Source: CAVQYV01 sp963718295 [NCBI: uncultured Methylomirabilota bacterium]
Lineage (GTDB): Bacteria > Methylomirabilota > Methylomirabilia > CAVQYV01
DNA length: 64,000 nt
NCBI GenBank assembly: GCA_963718295.1
Contig: CAVQYV010000008.1
Location: 310,001-374,000 of the forward strand
Reading direction: 5' to 3'
Part shown: one piece after another, positions 3,939-63,488 of the stretch
How the letters are laid out: each line of letters opens with the position of its first letter
Position numbering within the stretch: position 1 is the stretch's first letter
The notes under the pieces: model-generated
The model's input: only the letters and a program-made list of their open reading frames with translations
Database searches by the model: none
What the model was told of the DNA's origin: nothing
Position numbers and translations under genes: made by a program

Positions 3939-3943
3939 AAATC

Positions 3944-4101
3944 ATCCTCGTCAGGCGAGGTTACCCTACGAATCGAGGCCACTGCCCGGAAACGTCCGAA
4001 GGCGCCGATGGGTGCAGCAGGAATCATCGGAGCAAGGTTTTGCCTGAGGTGGCTGACGAGGCGGTCTCGGTACGTTGTAGGGTGCCAAAACTCGACCAGG
4101 G
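3944..4101 (+). promoter_or_regulatory. M-box (ykoK-type) Mg2+ riboswitch
   Basis: The strand carries, in order, the conserved words of the M-box aptamer: CGTCAGGCGAGG near 3949, CACTGCCCGGAAACGTCC near 3980, CGCCGATGGGT near 4003, CAGGAATCATCGG near 4018, and GTGCCAAAACTCGACCA at the 3' end near 4082. These match the core and L5/L4 contacts of the Bacillus ykoK leader in the right order and spacing. Known members turn off Mg2+ transport genes when Mg2+ is plentiful. About 250 bases separate the aptamer from the first start codon; a small hairpin (AAGCGC/GCGCTT near 4108) and GC-rich hairpins are visible there, but no clear terminator, so the expression platform is not resolved. Short ORFs across this leader are not coding. 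Confidence 0.87.
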
Positions 4102-4353
4102 GGGGGGAAGCGCAAAAGGCGCTTGAACATTTATGGGTCTCCTGGTCCGAGGCCAGGGGCTTTTGGTGGCATCTGCCAGACCCCGGGTTGCGAGGACTCA
4201 GCGATCGTCTTCTATGCAAACGTCATCAAACGGTTCTTCTAAGGATGGAGGGGACGACCCTCCCAATTGCACAACTTGCAATCCTTCCCTGAGAAGGGAG
4301 AGGAGGGGGAGCGGGTGCGGCACCGCTGAGGTGCCACTCAACCCGACTGCCCG

Positions 4354-10085: not shown

Positions 10086-10141
10086 CAAAGTCCACTTTCT
10101 TGACCTCAACAGTTCTTAGACAAACAGGAGATAAAGATAAG

Positions 10142-11278
10142 ATGAGAAGATTCATGGTGGTACTCACAGCCATCTCTATGGTGCTGGTTGCTGGAGCTTT
10201 GCCATCCTTCGCGGCAAAAGCCAAAGCGCCCGGAAACATAAAGGTGAACAGCCCAGCCAACGTCAATCAAATCGGCGCCGGCAAGTCAAACGTCGGATTC
10301 CTGGAACTTTACCAGCAGGATTCCTCGGGAAGCATAATCGGGGATGGCGCTCGAGGAAAGATGAAGTTCAACCTGGCTGGCTCAGACTTTGGATTTCTCT
10401 TCAACGGACACAGGCTGGACCCAAACACCCCTTATACTTTGATGCGAAGCCGTGAGCCGCTACTAACCCTGCCTTACCGCTTCGAGGTCATGGCGAGCGG
10501 ACAATCCAATGGTGGTGGGAACTTACATATCGCTGGTTCGTACAACTTCGACATTGACCTGGTGACTGCCAAGTTCCTTCTCGTCCCCGCTATTGCCGGC
10601 AGCTCAACCAAGCACCTGGTCGGCTTCCTCGTTGGTGACGAGGGCTCTATCGGGTACGACGACAAAGACACCGATCTGAAATGTGGCTGTCAGTCGGCCC
10701 TGATCACCGGACCCCGTGACTTCGATCCTTTGGGTTTACCAATTGGCACCAAGGGTGTGGACTTCACGCTAAGTAGCACCGAGGGTGTCCGGTACACGCT
10801 GTCCGGCCTCCTCAAGGATAAGCCAGTAGTGCTGATTACTGGCGCCTACACCTGAGGTCCCTTCCGGCAGCGGGTCGCTGCCACCAATGCTTTGTTTGGA
10901 AAGTACGGCGACAAGGTAAACTTCGTTGTGATTTATGTCATTGAACCCCATCCCTGGAAGCAGCCAAGCCCCTACAATCCATCCTTTAACCAAGAGAGTG
11001 AGCAGGGCAAGGGTATAAACGGCGAGAGCGACTATTTGTACCAACCAGACAACCATGAGTGGCGCCGTTCCCAAGCAGCTCGCATGAGGGCGGATCTTGG
11101 CGTATCGCCTGTTGTGCTCGTGGATGAAATGGACAATCCGGCCTGGTGCACCTATGGCCCTATGCCCAATTGTGCCTATTTGATAGGTACTGATGGCACC
11201 ATTATCGAAAAAGAAAGCTGGTACCAGCCAGACCTAATGGAGAAAGCGATTAGGGCTTACCTCGGATTAGCGCCGTAA
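10142..11278 (+). CDS. Exported iodothyronine-deiodinase-like selenoprotein (TGA read as Sec)
   Basis: From the ATG at 10142 (AGGAG 11 bases upstream) the frame stays open to the TAA at 11276-11278 except for one TGA, codon 238 at 10853-10855. Read as selenocysteine it gives KPVVLITGAYT-U-GPFRQRV, which matches the deiodinase active site (xFGSCT-U-PPF) in a thioredoxin fold. Similarity continues past the TGA: FVVIYVIEPHP (family YIxEAHP), VVLVDEMDNPAWCTYG and YLIGTDGTI. A bacterial SECIS-like hairpin follows at the right distance. Residues 1-25 are a signal peptide (MRRFMVVLTAISMVLVAGAL). Residues ~26-215 are an unrecognised, probably beta-rich domain containing KCGCQS. Likely a periplasmic selenium-dependent oxidoreductase or reductive dehalogenase; substrate unknown. 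Two broken ORFs would be the conventional reading; conservation on both sides of the TGA argues against it. Incorporation needs SelABCD elsewhere. Confidence 0.85.
10853..10882 (+). promoter_or_regulatory. Bacterial SECIS-like element directly after the TGA
   Basis: A perfect 6-bp stem, GGCAGC at 10866-10871 pairing with GCTGCC at 10877-10882, closes the loop GGGTC. The first loop guanine is 16 bases after the TGA. Bacterial SECIS elements typically have a short apical loop with a G in the first positions about 16-37 bases after the UGA, so position and shape both fit. The element lies within coding sequence, as expected in bacteria. Confidence 0.75.
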
Positions 11279-11334: not shown

Positions 11335-11366
11335 AGGGGGCTGCATTCGTGCAGCCCCCTCTTTGG
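11335..11366 (+). terminator. Intrinsic terminator after the deiodinase-like gene
   Basis: Eleven-base-pair GC-rich stem (AGGGGGCTGCA with TGCAGCCCCCT) capped by a TTCG loop and followed by a short T-rich stretch CTTT. It lies 57 bases after the stop codon, so the selenoprotein gene is probably monocistronic. Confidence 0.8.
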
Positions 11367-37755: not shown

Positions 37756-37777
37756 AACAGATAGATGTTGAATGATT

Positions 37778-37943
37778 CTCTGCAGGTCCGCTAAGGCTAA
37801 GAGGGAACCCTGTTAGATTCAGGGACGGGCCCGCCGCTGTAACCGGGGACGAAATCCGCAGGAAGGCCACTGATCCCCTTGGATGGGATTGGGAAGGCGC
37901 GGAGAGTAGAAAGATCCGGAAGCCAGAAGACCTGCCTGCAGAG
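37778..37943 (+). promoter_or_regulatory. Cobalamin riboswitch, first of two in tandem
   Basis: Contains the conserved AGGGAACCCTGTTAGATTC region, the CCGCCGCTGTAA core, the B12 box GCCACTG near 37868, GGGAAGGCGCGGA, and a closing segment GAAGCCAGAAGACC. The P1 stem is formed by CTCTGCAGGTC at 37778 and GACCTGCCTGCAGAG ending at 37943. An intrinsic terminator follows at 38002, so this copy likely works by transcription termination when adenosyl- or other cobalamin is bound. Confidence 0.93.
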
Positions 37944-38001
37944 TAGAAATGACCGCAATCCCGGGGCCGGATTGTCAATATCGGTCAGGGGATAAAAGAG
38001 G

Positions 38002-38041: not shown

Positions 38042-38070
38042 CAGGGGTTGTCATCAAACCTATTCATCTT

Positions 38071-38225
38071 GGGCACAGCTGGAGGGAAGAGGGAGAAAAG
38101 CCCTCGCCGCCCCGCGACTGTAATCGGGACGAAATCCGCAGGATGGCCACTGATCCCCTTGGATGGGATTGGGAAGGCGCGGAGAGTAGGAAGAACGAAA
38201 GCCAGGAGACCTCGACTGTGCCTCA
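38071..38225 (+). promoter_or_regulatory. Cobalamin riboswitch, second of two in tandem
   Basis: Core GCCGCCCCGCGACTGTAA, B12 box GCCACTG near 38145, GGGAAGGCGCGGA and GAAAGCCAGGAGACC. About 65 bases around the B12 box are nearly identical to the first copy, while the 5' part is shorter. P1 is formed by GGGCACAG at 38071 and CTGTGCC near 38216. It ends 40 bases before the btuB start and has no terminator, which suggests control of translation by masking the ribosome site (GGGGGGAGGAGG). Confidence 0.92.
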
Positions 38226-38264
38226 CAACTACTCGATCCCCGAGGGGGGAGGAGGACTCATCGA

Positions 38265-40211
38265 ATGAAGAAATGGTTTGCTGCCGTGTCCTCGATCTGG
38301 CTCCTATTTGCACCCCAGGACTTATGGGCAGAGGAGCCAGGGGAGGTGGAAGAGCTGGAAGAGGTGGTGGTGACGGCCACACGGCTGGAGGAACCCCTCA
38401 AGGAGGTGGCCAGCTCGGTGACGGTGATCTCCAGGGAGGAGGTGGAGGAGAAGCAACAGGCGACGATCTCCGAGGCGATCCGCTCCGTCCCCGGGCTGGA
38501 TGTGGTACAGGGAGGAGGCCCGGGAATGATGGCCCAGGTGTTCATTCGGGGGGCTGGGGACGGCCAGACGCTGGTCATGATGGATGGAATCGAATTGAAT
38601 GATCCCGTCTCCTTCAACCGCTCCTATGACTTTGCGTATTTGACTACCGATAACATCGAACGAATAGAGGTGGTCCGGGGCCCGCAGAGCACTCTGTACG
38701 GCTCCGATGCCGCCGGGGGCGTGATCAACATCATCACCAGGAAGGGCGAAGGGCCATTCAAAGCAACCCTTGCGGGCGAGGCCGGAACCTATCAGACCTA
38801 TCTGACCCGGGCAAACCTCAGTGGGGGAACCCAGCAGTTTCACTATTCTCTGGGGGGCACCTATGTGAATTCGGACGGGATCTCTGCTGCCAAGGAAAAG
38901 GGCTACACCCTTTCCGGGGAGAGGTATCGGAATCCGGAGAAGGACGGATATCGGAACAGCACCGTCACGGGAAGGGCAGGGTGGACGCCGATTCCCTCAT
39001 TGGATTGCGAGCTCATTCTCCGCTACCTCGACGGCCGATCCGACCTCGATAATCATGGAGGTCAAGGGGGAGATGACCCCAACGCCCGGCAGGATGTGGA
39101 GCAGTTTTTCTCGCGGCTGCAGGGCCGCCTATCATTATTCGGCGGTTTCTGGGAGCAGAAGCTGGGCGTTTCTCTTTCCAATCAGGATCGGGATTATCGC
39201 AATGATGAGGATGCCGATCATCCGACGGAGTCGGAAGAGGCCTCCTATGATGGCCGCATCACCAAATTGGACTGGCAGAATAATCTCTACCTCCATCCAA
39301 CCAACACCCTCACTGTCGGCCTGGAATACGAAGTCGAGAAAGGGCGAAGCGGCTATTCCTCCCAGGCCTTCGGCTTTTCCTTCACAAGCTCCCTCGAGGA
39401 GAAGAAGGCCACTACCCGCAGCGCCTACTTGCAGGATGAGGTGAGGCTGAAAGATCTCTTCTTTCTCACCGCGGGAATCCGACTGGATGACCATGGCCAG
39501 TTTGGATCGCAGACCACCTGGCGCCTCGCCCCGGCCATTCTCGTTCAGAAGACGAAGACCAAGATCAAGGGGAGCTGGGGCACAGGGTTCAAGGCCCCCA
39601 CCCTGTATCAGCTCTACGACCCTCAGTATGGAGATAAAGATCTTAACCCGGAGAAAAGCAAGGGCTGGGATGTGGGGGTGGAGCAGGACCTCTTCGGGCA
39701 GATCCTTTCCTTGGGGGCCACCTACTTTTACAATCACTTCGAAGACCTGATCGAGTTCGATGCGGGAATCAATCGGTTTGCCAATGTCGCGAAGGTGGAA
39801 ACCAAAGGAGTGGAATTGTTTGCCGCAGTCCGGCCGATCCCAGACCTGGCAATTCGGGGGACCTTTACCAGGACCGATGCTGAGGATGAAAAGACCGGGC
39901 TGACGCTGGTGCGGAGGCCAAGAAACAAGTGGAGCCTGGAAATGAACTACCATTTCTGGAAGGGGGCAAACCTGAATCTGGCGTATCGATATGTGGGGGA
40001 GCGATTTGATTACGACTATAGCACCTTCCCTCCCACCCGGGTGAAGCTCTCCCAATATGCCCTGGTCAACCTGGCTGCGTCGTACGACGTCACGCCCCGT
40101 TTCCAAATCTTCGGCCGGGTGGAAAACCTCGTCAATGAAGACTATGAGGAGGTCTTGGGTTACGGGACCTCAGGAAGATCGGTTTTTGGAGGCCTGAAGC
40201 TCTCCTTTTGA
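38265..40211 (+). CDS. btuB: TonB-dependent outer-membrane receptor for cobalamin/corrinoids (BtuB-like)
   Basis: 648 residues. Signal peptide 1-22 (MKKWFAAVSSIWLLFAPQDL, cut after WA), TonB box EELEEVVVTATRLEEPL at about 30-46, plug domain (ISEAIRSVPGLDVVQ, VFIRGAGDGQTLVMMDGIEL, IERIEVVRGPQSTLYGSDA), then a ~500-residue beta-barrel ending in a terminal Phe (SVFGGLKLSF). BtuB takes up cobalamin using TonB-ExbBD energy. The ATG has GGGGGGAGGAGG upstream, and two cobalamin riboswitches precede it, which makes a corrinoid substrate very likely. Followed by the matching ABC importer genes. Confidence 0.95.
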   Translation: MKKWFAAVSSIWLLFAPQDLWAEEPGEVEELEEVVVTATRLEEPLKEVASSVTVISREEVEEKQQATISEAIRSVPGLDVVQGGGPGMMAQVFIRGAGDGQTLVMMDGIELNDPVSFNRSYDFAYLTTDNIERIEVVRGPQSTLYGSDAAGGVINIITRKGEGPFKATLAGEAGTYQTYLTRANLSGGTQQFHYSLGGTYVNSDGISAAKEKGYTLSGERYRNPEKDGYRNSTVTGRAGWTPIPSLDCELILRYLDGRSDLDNHGGQGGDDPNARQDVEQFFSRLQGRLSLFGGFWEQKLGVSLSNQDRDYRNDEDADHPTESEEASYDGRITKLDWQNNLYLHPTNTLTVGLEYEVEKGRSGYSSQAFGFSFTSSLEEKKATTRSAYLQDEVRLKDLFFLTAGIRLDDHGQFGSQTTWRLAPAILVQKTKTKIKGSWGTGFKAPTLYQLYDPQYGDKDLNPEKSKGWDVGVEQDLFGQILSLGATYFYNHFEDLIEFDAGINRFANVAKVETKGVELFAAVRPIPDLAIRGTFTRTDAEDEKTGLTLVRRPRNKWSLEMNYHFWKGANLNLAYRYVGERFDYDYSTFPPTRVKLSQYALVNLAASYDVTPRFQIFGRVENLVNEDYEEVLGYGTSGRSVFGGLKLSF

Positions 40212-58069: not shown

Positions 58070-60039
58070 GTTGCGGAAGCTGGGTTTACTCTTTCTCGGC
58101 GATTGTCGGCCAGGAACGGATGAAGAAGGCGCTCCTCTTGAACGCCATCAATCCCAAGATCGGGGGCGTCCTCATCCGGGGGGAGAAGGGGACGGCCAAG
58201 TCCACGGCGGTGAGGGCCCTGGCCAACCTGCTGCCCCAGATGGAGGTGGTGGCCAACTGCCCCTTTGGCTGCAGCCCCCATGATTCCGTAGTCATGTGCT
58301 CCAATTGCCTGGAGGTCTACGAGCGGGGCGACACCTTCCCGGTCGAGATGCGTACGGTAAAAGTGGTTACCCTTCCGGTGGGTGCTACGGAGGATCGGGT
58401 CGTGGGGACCCTCGACCTGGAGCATGCGATCAAGAAGGGGGCCAAAAGGTTCGAGCCAGGGGTCCTGGCCGAGGTGAATCGGGGGATCCTCTATGTGGAC
58501 GAGGTGAACCTCCTGGAGGACCACATCGTGGATGTCTTGCTGGATTCGGCTGCCATGGGGATGAACATCGTAGAGAGGGAAGGCGTATCCTTCTCCCATC
58601 CCTCCCACTTCATCCTGGTGGGGACCATGAACCCGGAAGAGGGGGATTTGAGGCCTCAATTGTTGGACCGCTTTGGCCTCTGCGTGAACATCCAGGGGAT
58701 CTTCGATCGGGAAGAGCGGATGGAGGTTGCCCGCAGGAGATTGGCCTACGAAGGGAATCCCTTTGCCTTTGCCGAAAGATTTGCCCCCGAGGAGGAGCGG
58801 CTGCGGGAGGCAATCCGCCAGGCTCAACTCCTGTTGCCACGGGTGACGCTTCCCGAGCCTCTCATGGAGATGATCGTCGGCATCTCCATCGACATGGCGG
58901 TGGATGGCCACCGCTCCGACATCGTGATGGCCAAGACCGCCCTGACCCTGGCCGCATTGCATGGACGGGAAACGGTGGCGGAGGAGGATGTCAAGGAGGC
59001 AGCGGCATTAGTTCTTCCTCATCGGATGAGGCGACGGCCCTTTGAAGAGGAGCGCCTGAGCGAGGAGAAGATCCAGGACTCGATGGAGAAGACGAAGAAA
59101 GAACAGCCGCCCCCTTCCCAGGAGCCGCCTCCCGAGACCCCTCCGCCAGCGGAGCAGGAGCCGCCGCCGGTAGGCCCTCCCCCACCCCAAGAGAGGGAGC
59201 AGGTCTTTGAGGCCTCCGATCCTCAAGCCCTGAAGGAAATCAGCCTCCCTCGCGACCGTCGGACGCGGGCGGGCGGAGGACGACGGGTCTCCAGCCGAAC
59301 GGAGCGCAAGGCCGGCAGATATGTCAAAAGCTGTCTGCCCAAGGGGAAATGCCAGGATCTGGCCCTGGACGCCACTTTTCGGGCGGCGGCCCCCCACCAG
59401 GGACATCGCCGGGGAGAGCATGCCCTCATGATCGAAGATCCGGACATCCGGGAGAAGATCCGGGAACGTAAGGTTGGCACAACCCTCCTCTTCGTGGTGG
59501 ACGCCAGCGGTTCCATGGGGGCCCAGAGGAGGATGTCCGAGGCGAAAGGAGCCATCCTTTCCCTGCTCATGGATGCCTATCAGAAGAGAGACCGGGTGGG
59601 CATGGTGGCCTTCAAGGGCAAGGAGGCCAGGTTGATCCTGCCTCCCACGGGGTCGGTGGAACTGGCGAAGAAGCGACTGGAAGTCCTGCCCACGGGGGGA
59701 AGGACTCCCCTCTCCCGAGCCTTCCAGCTGGCTTATGAGGTATTAGAGCTGGAGAAGAAGAAAGATCCTGATCTGTATCCCTTGATGGTGATCGTCTCCG
59801 ACGGCAAACCCAATGTCTCTTTGTCCGGTAAAGACCCGTTGCAGGAGACGCTGGAGATAGCCGATCAGGTGCGGCAGGCGGGGATTGCCTCGCTCTTCCT
59901 GGATGTGGAGAAGGATTTTTTACGTCTGGGCATGGGGTCCAAGATCGCAACGGCCATGGGAGGCAAATACTATCGGCTGGAAGATTTGCGATCGGAGTCG
60001 ATCCTGAATATCCTGCGTAAGGAGGGAGTGGCCCATTGA
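58066..60039 (+). CDS. Magnesium-chelatase-type ATPase/VWA subunit (ChlI-ChlD fusion), partner of CobN
   Basis: 657 residues. AAA+ domain (1-~330): [20 protein letters not shown], Walker [41 protein letters not shown] (Walker B), [20 protein letters not shown] (sensor 1). A proline/glutamate-rich linker (~345-390) and basic segment follow, then a VWA domain (~470-657) with the MIDAS motif [20 protein letters not shown] and [15 protein letters not shown]. ChlI and ChlD together drive metal insertion by the large subunit. In cobalamin-regulated operons such proteins are thought to replace CobS/CobT. N-terminal cysteines in [19 protein letters not shown] suggest a metal site. Start ATG overlaps the cobN stop. 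Confidence 0.93.
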
Positions 60040-60874
60040 TTCGCCTGGAAGCAGTGACGAAATGCTACGGCAGCCTCCACGCGGTCAAGGATCTTTCCCT
60101 TCATATCCAAAGAGGTGAGGTCTTCGGTTTTCTGGGTCCCAATGGCGCAGGCAAGACGACTACGATCCACATGATGACCACCCTGACCCGTCCTACCTCG
60201 GGCCAAATCTTCATTGGCGGCTATGACTTGAGTCACCAGCCAACCCAGGCCAAAATGGCCTTTGGAATGGTGCCTCAACAGCTGAATTTGGAAAAGGGCC
60301 TGACGGTCTATCAAAACCTCGATCTTCATGGCCGGCTTTATCGATTGGCGAAAGAGGAACGGCGGAAGAGGATCCAAGGAGTGCTGGAATATGTGGGCCT
60401 TTGGGGGGAGCAAAAGATGCGGGTCCGAAATCTGTCCGGGGGCATGGAGCGCCGTCTCTTAATCGCCCGAGGGGTTCTGCATCAACCCCAGATCCTTTTT
60501 CTGATGAGCCCACCGTGGGCCTCGATCCCCAGACCCGACGGCGCATTTGGGATATGATTCGACAGATGCGCGAAGAAGGAGTGACCATCTTCCTTACCAC
60601 TCACTATATCGAGGAAGCCGACATGCTCTGTGACCGCGTGGGAATCATCCATCAGGGTCGGATGATTGCGATAGGGCATCCGGATCTCCTGAAGGATCAG
60701 AAGGGCCGGTTTACCCTCGAATACCGCAGCAATGGCCAGACGCATTGGCGTTTCTATCAGGATCGCAATAGTGCCCTGGAGGATATGGGGTCCTATCCCG
60801 GGGAAGTGCGGCTCCGGGATACGAACCTCGAAGACGTGTTTATCAGCCTGACCGGCCTTACTATGCGAGATTGA
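60036..60874 (+). CDS. ABC-2 type exporter ATP-binding protein (one-base frameshift)
   Basis: Walker [19 protein letters not shown]-loop [12 protein letters not shown], signature [20 protein letters not shown] in the first frame; [20 protein letters not shown] (Walker B and D-loop), [19 protein letters not shown] and the tail in the second. Inserting one G into CTGATGAG near 60502 restores [13 protein letters not shown]. About 280 residues when joined, like DrrA/CcmA-type exporters. The start is probably the TTG at 60036 overlapping the previous stop. The permease gene follows at once. Exported substrate unknown. Confidence 0.9.
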
Positions 60875-61776: not shown

Positions 61777-61877
61777 CCACAAAGGCTGCTGCGGATACTC
61801 TTAGCGCAGGAAGCAGTCTCGAAACCAGGCGTGGGGAAGGATCTCTGTCTACGATACAGGGGAGGTGAGGGGTACGG

Positions 61878-62120
61878 ATGTGTGAAGCAACGGCTTTTTT
61901 GATGGGAGAGGATGGTAAAGAGGTAGTCTTGCTGAAAGATGTGGATGTCCTGCGCCCCCGTGGAAGAAAGGTTTATCTGTGTGACATCTTCGGAGAACAG
62001 AGGGAGATCGAGGCGGAGATCAAGGAAATCAGTCTTTTGAACCACCGAATCTTGCTGCGAAAGAGAGGGGGTTCAAGAAACGAAAAGAGGGGTGTCAGAT
62101 CGGCCGCGAAGGCCGAATGA
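61878..62120 (+). CDS. cooT: CooT family nickel-binding protein, copy A
   Basis: 80 residues behind GGAGGTGAGG. Begins MCEATAFLMGEDGKEVVLLK; the Cys at position 2 is the nickel ligand of the CooT dimer in CODH maturation. Then DVDVLRPRGRKVYLCDIFGE and IKEISLLNHRILLRKRG complete the ~65-residue family fold, with a basic 15-residue extension. CooT binds one Ni2+ per dimer and helps load nickel enzymes. It ends a chelatase/importer operon rather than a CODH operon, so it may deliver Ni (or Co) to the CobN-type chelatase or to an enzyme elsewhere. Confidence 0.85.
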   Translation: MCEATAFLMGEDGKEVVLLKDVDVLRPRGRKVYLCDIFGEQREIEAEIKEISLLNHRILLRKRGGSRNEKRGVRSAAKAE

Positions 62121-63145: not shown

Positions 63146-63254
63146 ATCCCTTGCCAGCCAGGGGGCGGAAACTCTCACCCAGCAGGACAGGCGAGGCCGG
63201 AGTAGAAACGAGCAAACAGGGCTCCGAATGGTGCGAAGGAGGTGATGGGTGCAG

Positions 63255-63488
63255 ATGTGTGAGGCGACCGCTTTTCTGATCAAAGGTGATGGAAGGGAGA
63301 ACGTCTACCTGAAGGATGTGGATGTGATCCGACCCAAGGGCGAAATACTGTATCTGCAGGACGTATTTGGGGAACAAAGAGAGATCAAAGCAGAGATCAA
63401 AGAGATCAGCCTCTTGAATCACCGTATCCTCCTGAAGAGAGTTGGGCTGAGCAAGACGCAAAAAGAAGCGACCATAAAGCGGCCATGA
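63255..63488 (+). CDS. CooT family nickel-binding protein, copy B
   Basis: 77 residues from the ATG at 63255 with a full AAGGAGGTGATG ribosome site. MCEATAFLIKGDGRENVYLK keeps the Cys2 nickel ligand; DVDVIRPKGEILYLQDVFGE and EIKEISLLNHRILLKR match copy A closely. A two-codon longer GTG start (63249) would remove Cys2 from the N-terminus and is unlikely. Intact paralogue of the protein at 61878, within the decayed copy of the operon. Confidence 0.83.
   Translation: MCEATAFLIKGDGRENVYLKDVDVIRPKGEILYLQDVFGEQREIKAEIKEISLLNHRILLKRVGLSKTQKEATIKRP

What the first reader, a model, noticed from the sequence alone, without database searches (positions are those of the whole stretch)
10142..11278. Bacterial iodothyronine-deiodinase-like selenoprotein hidden by an in-frame TGA
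The TGA at 10853 stands exactly where deiodinases have selenocysteine. Deiodinase-like sequence continues on both sides in the same frame (VVLITGAYT before, GPF and VIEPHP after), and a 6-bp SECIS-like hairpin with a G-starting loop lies 16 bases downstream. Standard annotation would split this into an unknown protein and a fragment. A secreted bacterial deiodinase-like enzyme may reduce or dehalogenate an unknown substrate.
Basis: partly seen in the sequence, partly recalled or inferred. Interest (0 to 1): 0.9.

Follow-up and report, generated by a model that had tools for sequence, protein, structure and literature searches.

The report
Exported bacterial deiodinase-like selenoprotein
A bacterial gene that looks broken by a stop codon most likely encodes an exported enzyme with selenium at its active site, a distant cousin of the enzymes that process thyroid hormone, and its closest relatives seen here carry likely haem-binding motifs in place of its front domain.

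Summary
ORF 10142-11278 is open except for TGA 10853-10855, and deiodinase-like sequence lies in frame on both sides. Fourteen distinct homologous genes from two phylum-level groups have TGA at the same codon. A G-loop hairpin follows the TGA at a recurring offset with differing stems, beyond what the protein sequences explain (11 representatives: P about 1e-5 for strength, 1e-7 for position). AlphaFold2 gives a thioredoxin fold whose best solved matches are deiodinases 2 and 3. The host genome is not held, so its sel genes could not be checked.

Bacterial deiodinase-like selenoproteins have been in print since 2005, so the kind is known. The variant looks new: an exported protein with a modular beta domain, in a well-supported clade with three relatives that carry four CxxCH motifs before the same Sec domain. 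Members share WCTYGPxPNC where vertebrate deiodinases hold the hormone. Most likely it is an extracytoplasmic Sec-dependent reductase, resolved by these cysteines, acting on something other than thyroid hormone. Whether it dehalogenates or reduces peroxides or disulfides is open.

The parts
10127..10131 (+). Shine-Dalgarno-like AGGAG, 10 nt before the ATG
   Evidence: read from sequence
10142..11278 (+). Selenoprotein gene, 378 codons with TGA as Sec, plus TAA
10142..10216 (+). Sec-type signal peptide, 25 residues (basic start, hydrophobic core, small residues at the end); by eye, no predictor was run
   Evidence: read from translation
10217..10681 (+). Modular beta domain (residues 26-180); also standalone, in tandem and beside other domains in other genomes; no Pfam match
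10682..10690 (+). CGC (Cys181, Cys183) at the junction of the two domains
10736..11266 (+). Deiodinase-like thioredoxin-fold domain (about residues 199-375)
10853..10855 (+). In-frame TGA, predicted selenocysteine 238 (motif T-U-G-P-F)
10866..10882 (+). Predicted bacterial SECIS hairpin GGCAGC-GGGUC-GCUGCC; loop starts 16 nt after the TGA
10934..10951 (+). Y265, E268, H270: the deiodinase Tyr, Glu and His of the proposed proton relay
11144..11173 (+). WCTYGPMPNC (Cys336, Cys344): cysteine pair shared by the four clade members, in the loop that lines the substrate site of deiodinases
11336..11359 (+). GC-rich hairpin (10 bp, UUCG loop) after the gene, possible terminator with a T-poor tail
   Evidence: z -4.45, 0 of 200 shuffles; not reported by the consensus scan

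Best explanation
The gene encodes an exported selenoprotein of the deiodinase-like branch of the thioredoxin fold. SelB with Sec-tRNA reads UGA 10853 as Sec with the help of the hairpin just downstream (sequence evidence strong, not shown by experiment). The protein is exported by its signal peptide and carries a modular beta domain ahead of the redox domain. In the redox domain the selenolate of Sec238, helped by Thr237, Tyr265, Glu268 and His270, attacks an electrophilic atom of a small substrate. The selenenyl intermediate is resolved by Cys344/Cys336 in the facing loop (inferred), and electrons come from an extracytoplasmic donor. In the sister proteins a segment with four CxxCH motifs sits in the same chain and would be that donor (inferred). 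The substrate is not thyroid hormone; a halogenated organic compound, a peroxide or a disulfide are all possible.
For: Joined frame matches Pfam T4_deiodinase above its cut-off (34.1 against 27 bits, 2.3e-8). Profile of 18 domain sequences matches DIO3 at 1.6e-31 and DIO2 at 8.2e-24, ResA next at 6.8e-13. Predicted domain (pLDDT 86.4): best solved matches DIO2 Z 21.8 and DIO3 Z 20.5, then ResA 17.8. TGA at the aligned codon in 14 distinct genes. Hairpin strength and offset beyond synonymous recoding. SelB over cut-off in 13 of 14 genomes with TGA homologs. Clade with L101-L103, support 100/99; four CxxCH each. Cys336/Cys344 kept in all four.
Against: Host genome not held, so no sel gene was seen; no tRNA was found in the window and no tRNA-Sec family at the gathering score. 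SelB is common in genomes without a match too (30 of 40), so co-occurrence is no real support; one TGA genome (G005) has none over cut-off. Homologs with Ser, Ala or Gly exist. The window's hairpin alone is not exceptional; 3 of 11 representatives have weak hairpins and 3 more are above 0.05. The sister proteins L101 and L102 score below the Pfam deiodinase cut-off (21.8 and 23.1 against 27 bits), and no cytochrome family was listed for them full length, only a sub-threshold cytochrome c7 hit for the front part of L101. No conserved neighbours by eye. Resolving role of the cysteines and haem electron supply are inference.
Confidence: 0.78

Rival explanations
1. A Sec-dependent peroxidase or thiol-disulfide reductase (peroxiredoxin- or ResA-like in function) that kept a deiodinase-like shape but removes no halogen. 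This is a reading of the substrate within the best explanation.
For: Same fold class: ResA and AhpE follow at Z 17-18; sub-threshold AhpC-TSA and Redoxin matches. Thyronine-holding Phe-Glu-Arg replaced by Pro-Asn-Cys.
Against: Nearest solved structures by sequence and fold are deiodinases; an insertion follows the EPHP motif at the place of the deiodinase insertion, though the model is of low confidence there. No CxxC as in ResA.
Confidence: 0.45
2. A reductive dehalogenase for iodinated or brominated organics outside the cytoplasm, fed by haem electrons in the relatives. Also a reading within the best explanation.
For: Deiodinase homology, conserved Thr, Tyr, Glu and His, export, four CxxCH motifs in sister proteins.
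Against: No halogen-related gene recognised near the gene (Pfam) or, by eye, near 6 relatives; substrate loop differs from vertebrate deiodinases.
Confidence: 0.3
3. A gene recently broken by a nonsense mutation or a base-calling error; the TGA is a real stop or an artefact.
For: Host sel genes not seen; the window's hairpin alone is only in the top 2.4% of TGA sites (50 of 2092).
Against: Same codon is TGA in 14 distinct homologous genes, with a hairpin at a recurring offset; both halves look coding.
Confidence: 0.03
4. An old selenoprotein gene in a host that has lost the Sec machinery, so that only a truncated protein is made.
For: Machinery not observable here; G005 carries a TGA homolog but no SelB over cut-off, though it is a draft assembly.
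Against: 13 of 14 genomes with TGA homologs have SelB over cut-off; the downstream part of the window gene is intact to its own stop.
Confidence: 0.05

Closest known systems
Bacterial deiodinase-like selenoproteins (Sargasso Sea set, PMC1088965; listed in PMC9312934 and PMC13188914)
   Same: PF00837-type domain with UGA-Sec and bacterial SECIS
   Different: The two reviews give the motif as UxxC; the window has U-G-P-F and none of the 14 TGA homologs has Cys at +3. Export, the beta domain and the CxxCH sister fusions are not mentioned in the passages I read
Vertebrate iodothyronine deiodinases DIO2 and DIO3 (9h48, 4tr3)
   Same: Fold, Sec position, T-U, Tyr/Glu/His of the proposed proton relay, an insertion after the His
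   Different: Relay Ser and second His replaced (Ala235, Pro302); Phe-Glu-Arg substrate loop replaced by Pro-Asn-Cys; no Cys at the DIO3 U-2 position or at the distal Cys by alignment; signal peptide and extra domain
NCBIfam NF038285 'deiodinase family protein'
   Same: Residues 201-357 match, 4.7e-28
   Different: 98.6 bits against a cut-off of 250: relative, not a member
ResA-type thiol-disulfide reductases and AhpE-type peroxiredoxins
   Same: Thioredoxin fold
   Different: Different active-site motifs; lower fold and profile scores than deiodinases

Membership tests
Deiodinase superfamily (PF00837-like) | Match to the family model over its cut-off | tested here: met
   34.1 bits, cut-off 27; sister proteins L101 and L102 fall below it
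Deiodinase superfamily (PF00837-like) | Thioredoxin fold closest to deiodinases | tested here: met
   Z 21.8 and 20.5 for DIO2 and DIO3, next 17.8
Deiodinase superfamily (PF00837-like) | Sec (or Cys) in the T-U-P-P-F motif | tested here: met
   TUGPF in the window, TGA in 14 homologous genes
Thyronine deiodinase proper (DIO1-3) | Proton relay Ser, Thr, Tyr, Glu, His, His | tested here: inconclusive
   Thr, Tyr, Glu and first His kept; Ser is Ala, second His is Pro by alignment
Thyronine deiodinase proper (DIO1-3) | Phe-Glu-Arg loop at the substrate site | tested here: not met
   Pro342-Asn343-Cys344
Thyronine deiodinase proper (DIO1-3) | Removal of iodide from thyronines | not testable with these tools
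   needs an assay
Bacterial selenoprotein | In-frame UGA with a G-loop hairpin 16-37 nt downstream (criterion recalled) | tested here: met
Bacterial selenoprotein | selA, selB, selC and selD in the host | not testable with these tools
   genome not held
Bacterial selenoprotein | Sec shown in the protein | not testable with these tools
   needs 75Se or mass spectrometry
NF038285 | Score over the curated cut-off | tested here: not met
   98.6 against 250 bits

The most novel reading that the evidence does not exclude
The clade is an unrecognised, corrinoid-free route of reductive dehalogenation outside the cytoplasm: a selenocysteine reductase wired to c-type haems (same chain in the sister proteins, partner cytochrome here), which would turn deiodinase chemistry into a respiratory or detoxifying process.
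Probability: 0.15. Interest if true: 0.85.

Novelty: new variant of a known kind. Interest (0 to 1): 0.5.

Why it matters
The passages I read on bacterial deiodinase-like selenoproteins (2005 to 2026) name no substrate or electron donor. A clade in which the Sec domain appears exported and, in three sister proteins, shares a chain with four CxxCH motifs suggests where the electrons may come from and what to test. The gene is also one that gene calling by table 11 splits, so the clade may be under-counted.

Tried and rejected
Nonsense mutation or sequencing error: rejected on homologous TGA codons and recurring hairpin position. SelB co-occurrence as proof: not usable, since background is 30 of 40. 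Column-wise covariation of the hairpin: by eye the apex shifts by 1-2 nt between subfamilies in alignment A1, so I used synonymous recoding instead. Rfam: only two cobalamin and one magnesium riboswitch in the window at the gathering threshold, and no SECIS family at E up to 10 around the TGA. Other selenoproteins in the window: none stood out by eye among the 25 top of 137 sites. Gene neighbourhood: no conserved neighbour by eye in 6 of the 9 regions fetched; L126, L128 and L129 were not examined. Viral contigs: no match with one scan. Phage records and metagenome contigs were not searched; of the plasmids, one distant protein hit, and 39 records by DNA with the 20 listed rows all outside the deiodinase gene. 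A first scan of genome contigs with the protein found no relative. Host taxonomy: RsmB is at most 45% identical in 297 genomes of the phylum of a Desulfobacteraceae record and scores nearly as well in the genomes of L017 and of Desulfofundulus L012: unresolved. Searches in the classes of G424 (17 genomes), G256 (3) and G350 (55) and the phylum of G003 (9) gave one further gene with the clade motif, L121, partial and without the Sec codon; L131 and L132 were not examined. Fold of the N-terminal domain: low-confidence model (pLDDT 63.3), best hit Cu/Zn superoxide dismutase at E 7.2e-3: no conclusion.

Full report
What is there. The frame 10142-11278 is open apart from TGA 10853-10855. Read through, it gives 378 residues: a signal peptide (by eye), a domain of about 155 residues without a Pfam match, and a domain that matches Pfam T4_deiodinase above its cut-off (34.1 against 27 bits) and, below the cut-off, NCBIfam NF038285. 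In the PDB the best sequence matches are DIO3 (1.1e-5) and DIO2 (7.6e-4), both aligned across the TGA, with a thioredoxin close behind (1.0e-3).

Is the TGA selenocysteine? Among 137 TGA triplets in the window with 50 open codons before and 40 after, this one has the highest summed coding score, 10.7; the next, 10.6, is uneven and antisense to an ORF. I searched 15 genomes by locus handle, 201 of the phylum of a Chloroflexi record and 297 of the phylum of a Desulfobacteraceae record (the tool names no groups, the labels come from record titles). Matches to some part of the protein: 2 of 15, 15 of 201 and 19 of 297 genomes; TGA homologs: 8 of the 201 and 6 of the 297. I examined 39 loci (L092/L099 and L106/L120 are each one gene fetched twice). 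In 29 the alignment covers residue 238: 15 rows have a stop there, TGA in each (14 distinct genes), 10 Cys, 2 Ser, 1 Ala and 1 Gly. Nine of the ten Cys rows have CxxC there and look like ordinary thioredoxin-family proteins (by eye); the tenth is a plasmid gene annotated deiodinase-like. Eight further rows match only the N-terminal domain, and two (L090, L114) were not recovered in that call. So among 19 genes that I count as deiodinase-like by alignment there are 14 TGA, 1 Cys and 4 other residues.

Hairpin. After the TGA the window has GGCAGC-GGGUC-GCUGCC, with the loop starting after 16 nt, or 17 if the inner G-C pair is counted. Of 2092 TGA triplets in the window, 50 have a qualifying hairpin as strong, and the fold does not beat shuffles (z -0.66), so by itself this is weak evidence. 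Across homologs it becomes strong. In 11 of 15 genes (window plus 14) the best hairpin starts its loop at +17 although stems differ. For 11 representatives, one of each group of near relatives as I judged them, window included, I recoded the 25 downstream codons synonymously 3000 times each: combined P for strength is 1.2e-5, and 8 of 11 at +17 against 1.3 expected gives about 1e-7. Singly, 5 of 11 are below 0.05; three (L085, L086, L089) have weak hairpins. Of four homologs with a residue other than Sec, one Ser form (L091) has a strong hairpin at another offset (P 0.033) and the Gly form is at 0.051, the other two at 0.51 and 1.0, which shows the noise of the single-gene test.

Machinery. 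No genome is held for the window. SelB over the curated cut-off is present in 20 of 24 genomes tested, 13 of the 14 with a TGA homolog, but also in 30 of 40 genomes without a match (18 of 20 and 12 of 20 in the two phyla; the first listed, not a random draw). This is consistency, not proof.

Relatives and anatomy. In a tree of 18 deiodinase-like domains the window groups with L101, L102 and L103 (support 100/99); L002, L100 and the duplicate L099 were left out. These three carry four CxxCH motifs each ahead of the Sec domain, and L101 and L102 start with a lipobox-like signal (by eye). Pfam gives only a sub-threshold cytochrome c7 hit for the front part of L101 (18.3 against 24.8 bits) and no cytochrome for L101 or L102 full length; both also fall below the deiodinase cut-off. 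So haem binding rests on the motifs. The window has no CxxCH. Its own front domain occurs elsewhere as a standalone protein (L104, L108), in tandem (L120), beside an esterase-like domain (L110) and within a longer protein (L109), also in the Chloroflexi-record phylum (L090). The other TGA homologs show no obvious signal peptide by eye, with starts chosen by script.

Active site. The domain model (pLDDT 86.4, Sec modelled as Cys, low confidence at residues 1-9 and 100-103 of the model) is closest to DIO2 (Z 21.8, rmsd 2.4, 170 aligned) and DIO3 (Z 20.5, rmsd 2.9, 171 aligned), then ResA (17.8); Foldseek ranks the same two first. A profile of 18 domains finds DIO3 at 1.6e-31. Passages of PMC11592359 name a proposed proton relay of Ser, Thr, Tyr, Glu, His and His, and a substrate site with Phe224, Glu225 and Arg226 in DIO2. 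By alignment the window keeps Thr237, Tyr265, Glu268 and His270, has Ala235 and Pro302 for the other two, and has Pro342-Asn343-Cys344 for Phe-Glu-Arg. Cys336 and Cys344 are kept in all four clade members. I infer that Cys344 faces the Sec and resolves it; no distance was measured.

What is known. PMC1088965 (passages) reported 4 Sec deiodinase-like sequences and Cys homologs with bacterial SECIS in 2005 and suggested a redox function. The reviews PMC9312934 and PMC13188914 (passages) list the family with motif UxxC; the passages give no function. No paper was read whole; the other papers were seen as search listings only. A search for selenoprotein, multiheme cytochrome and deiodinase together gave 0 papers; the library holds only open-licence papers. 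I conclude: known kind, apparently new variant.

Surroundings. Upstream lie Nramp, AtuA, DUF4387 and M20 peptidase genes, downstream DUF5752 and trehalose synthesis genes, all on the same strand. With its own Shine-Dalgarno-like site, a gap to both neighbours and a strong hairpin after the stop the gene is probably transcribed alone.

Noticed in passing
37767-37953 and 38059-38234: Two cobalamin riboswitches in a row (117.9 and 87.6 bits), just upstream of an ORF at 38265 that by eye looks like a TonB-dependent receptor.
   Followed up: no
60036-60874: An ABC-transporter ATPase-like ORF ends early at 60557, and an ATPase-like C-terminal end appears in another frame before the TGA at 60872: a possible frameshift or broken gene (by eye).
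   Followed up: no
about 61866-61960 and 63243-63340: Two similar short frames containing MCEATAFL, possibly paralogous CooT-like small proteins (name recalled, from no call).
   Followed up: no
10217-10681; L104, L108, L120, L109, L110, L090: A modular beta domain (motif FNGHGL...YTLIYYPDPWP in most members aligned) with no Pfam match in the three proteins where it was scanned alone or in tandem, in several architectures.
   Followed up: partly
L091, L094, L093, L100: Deiodinase-like proteins with Ser, Ser, Gly and Ala in place of Sec, possibly without the catalytic residue.
   Followed up: partly
3940-4110: M-box magnesium riboswitch (102.8 bits).
   Followed up: no
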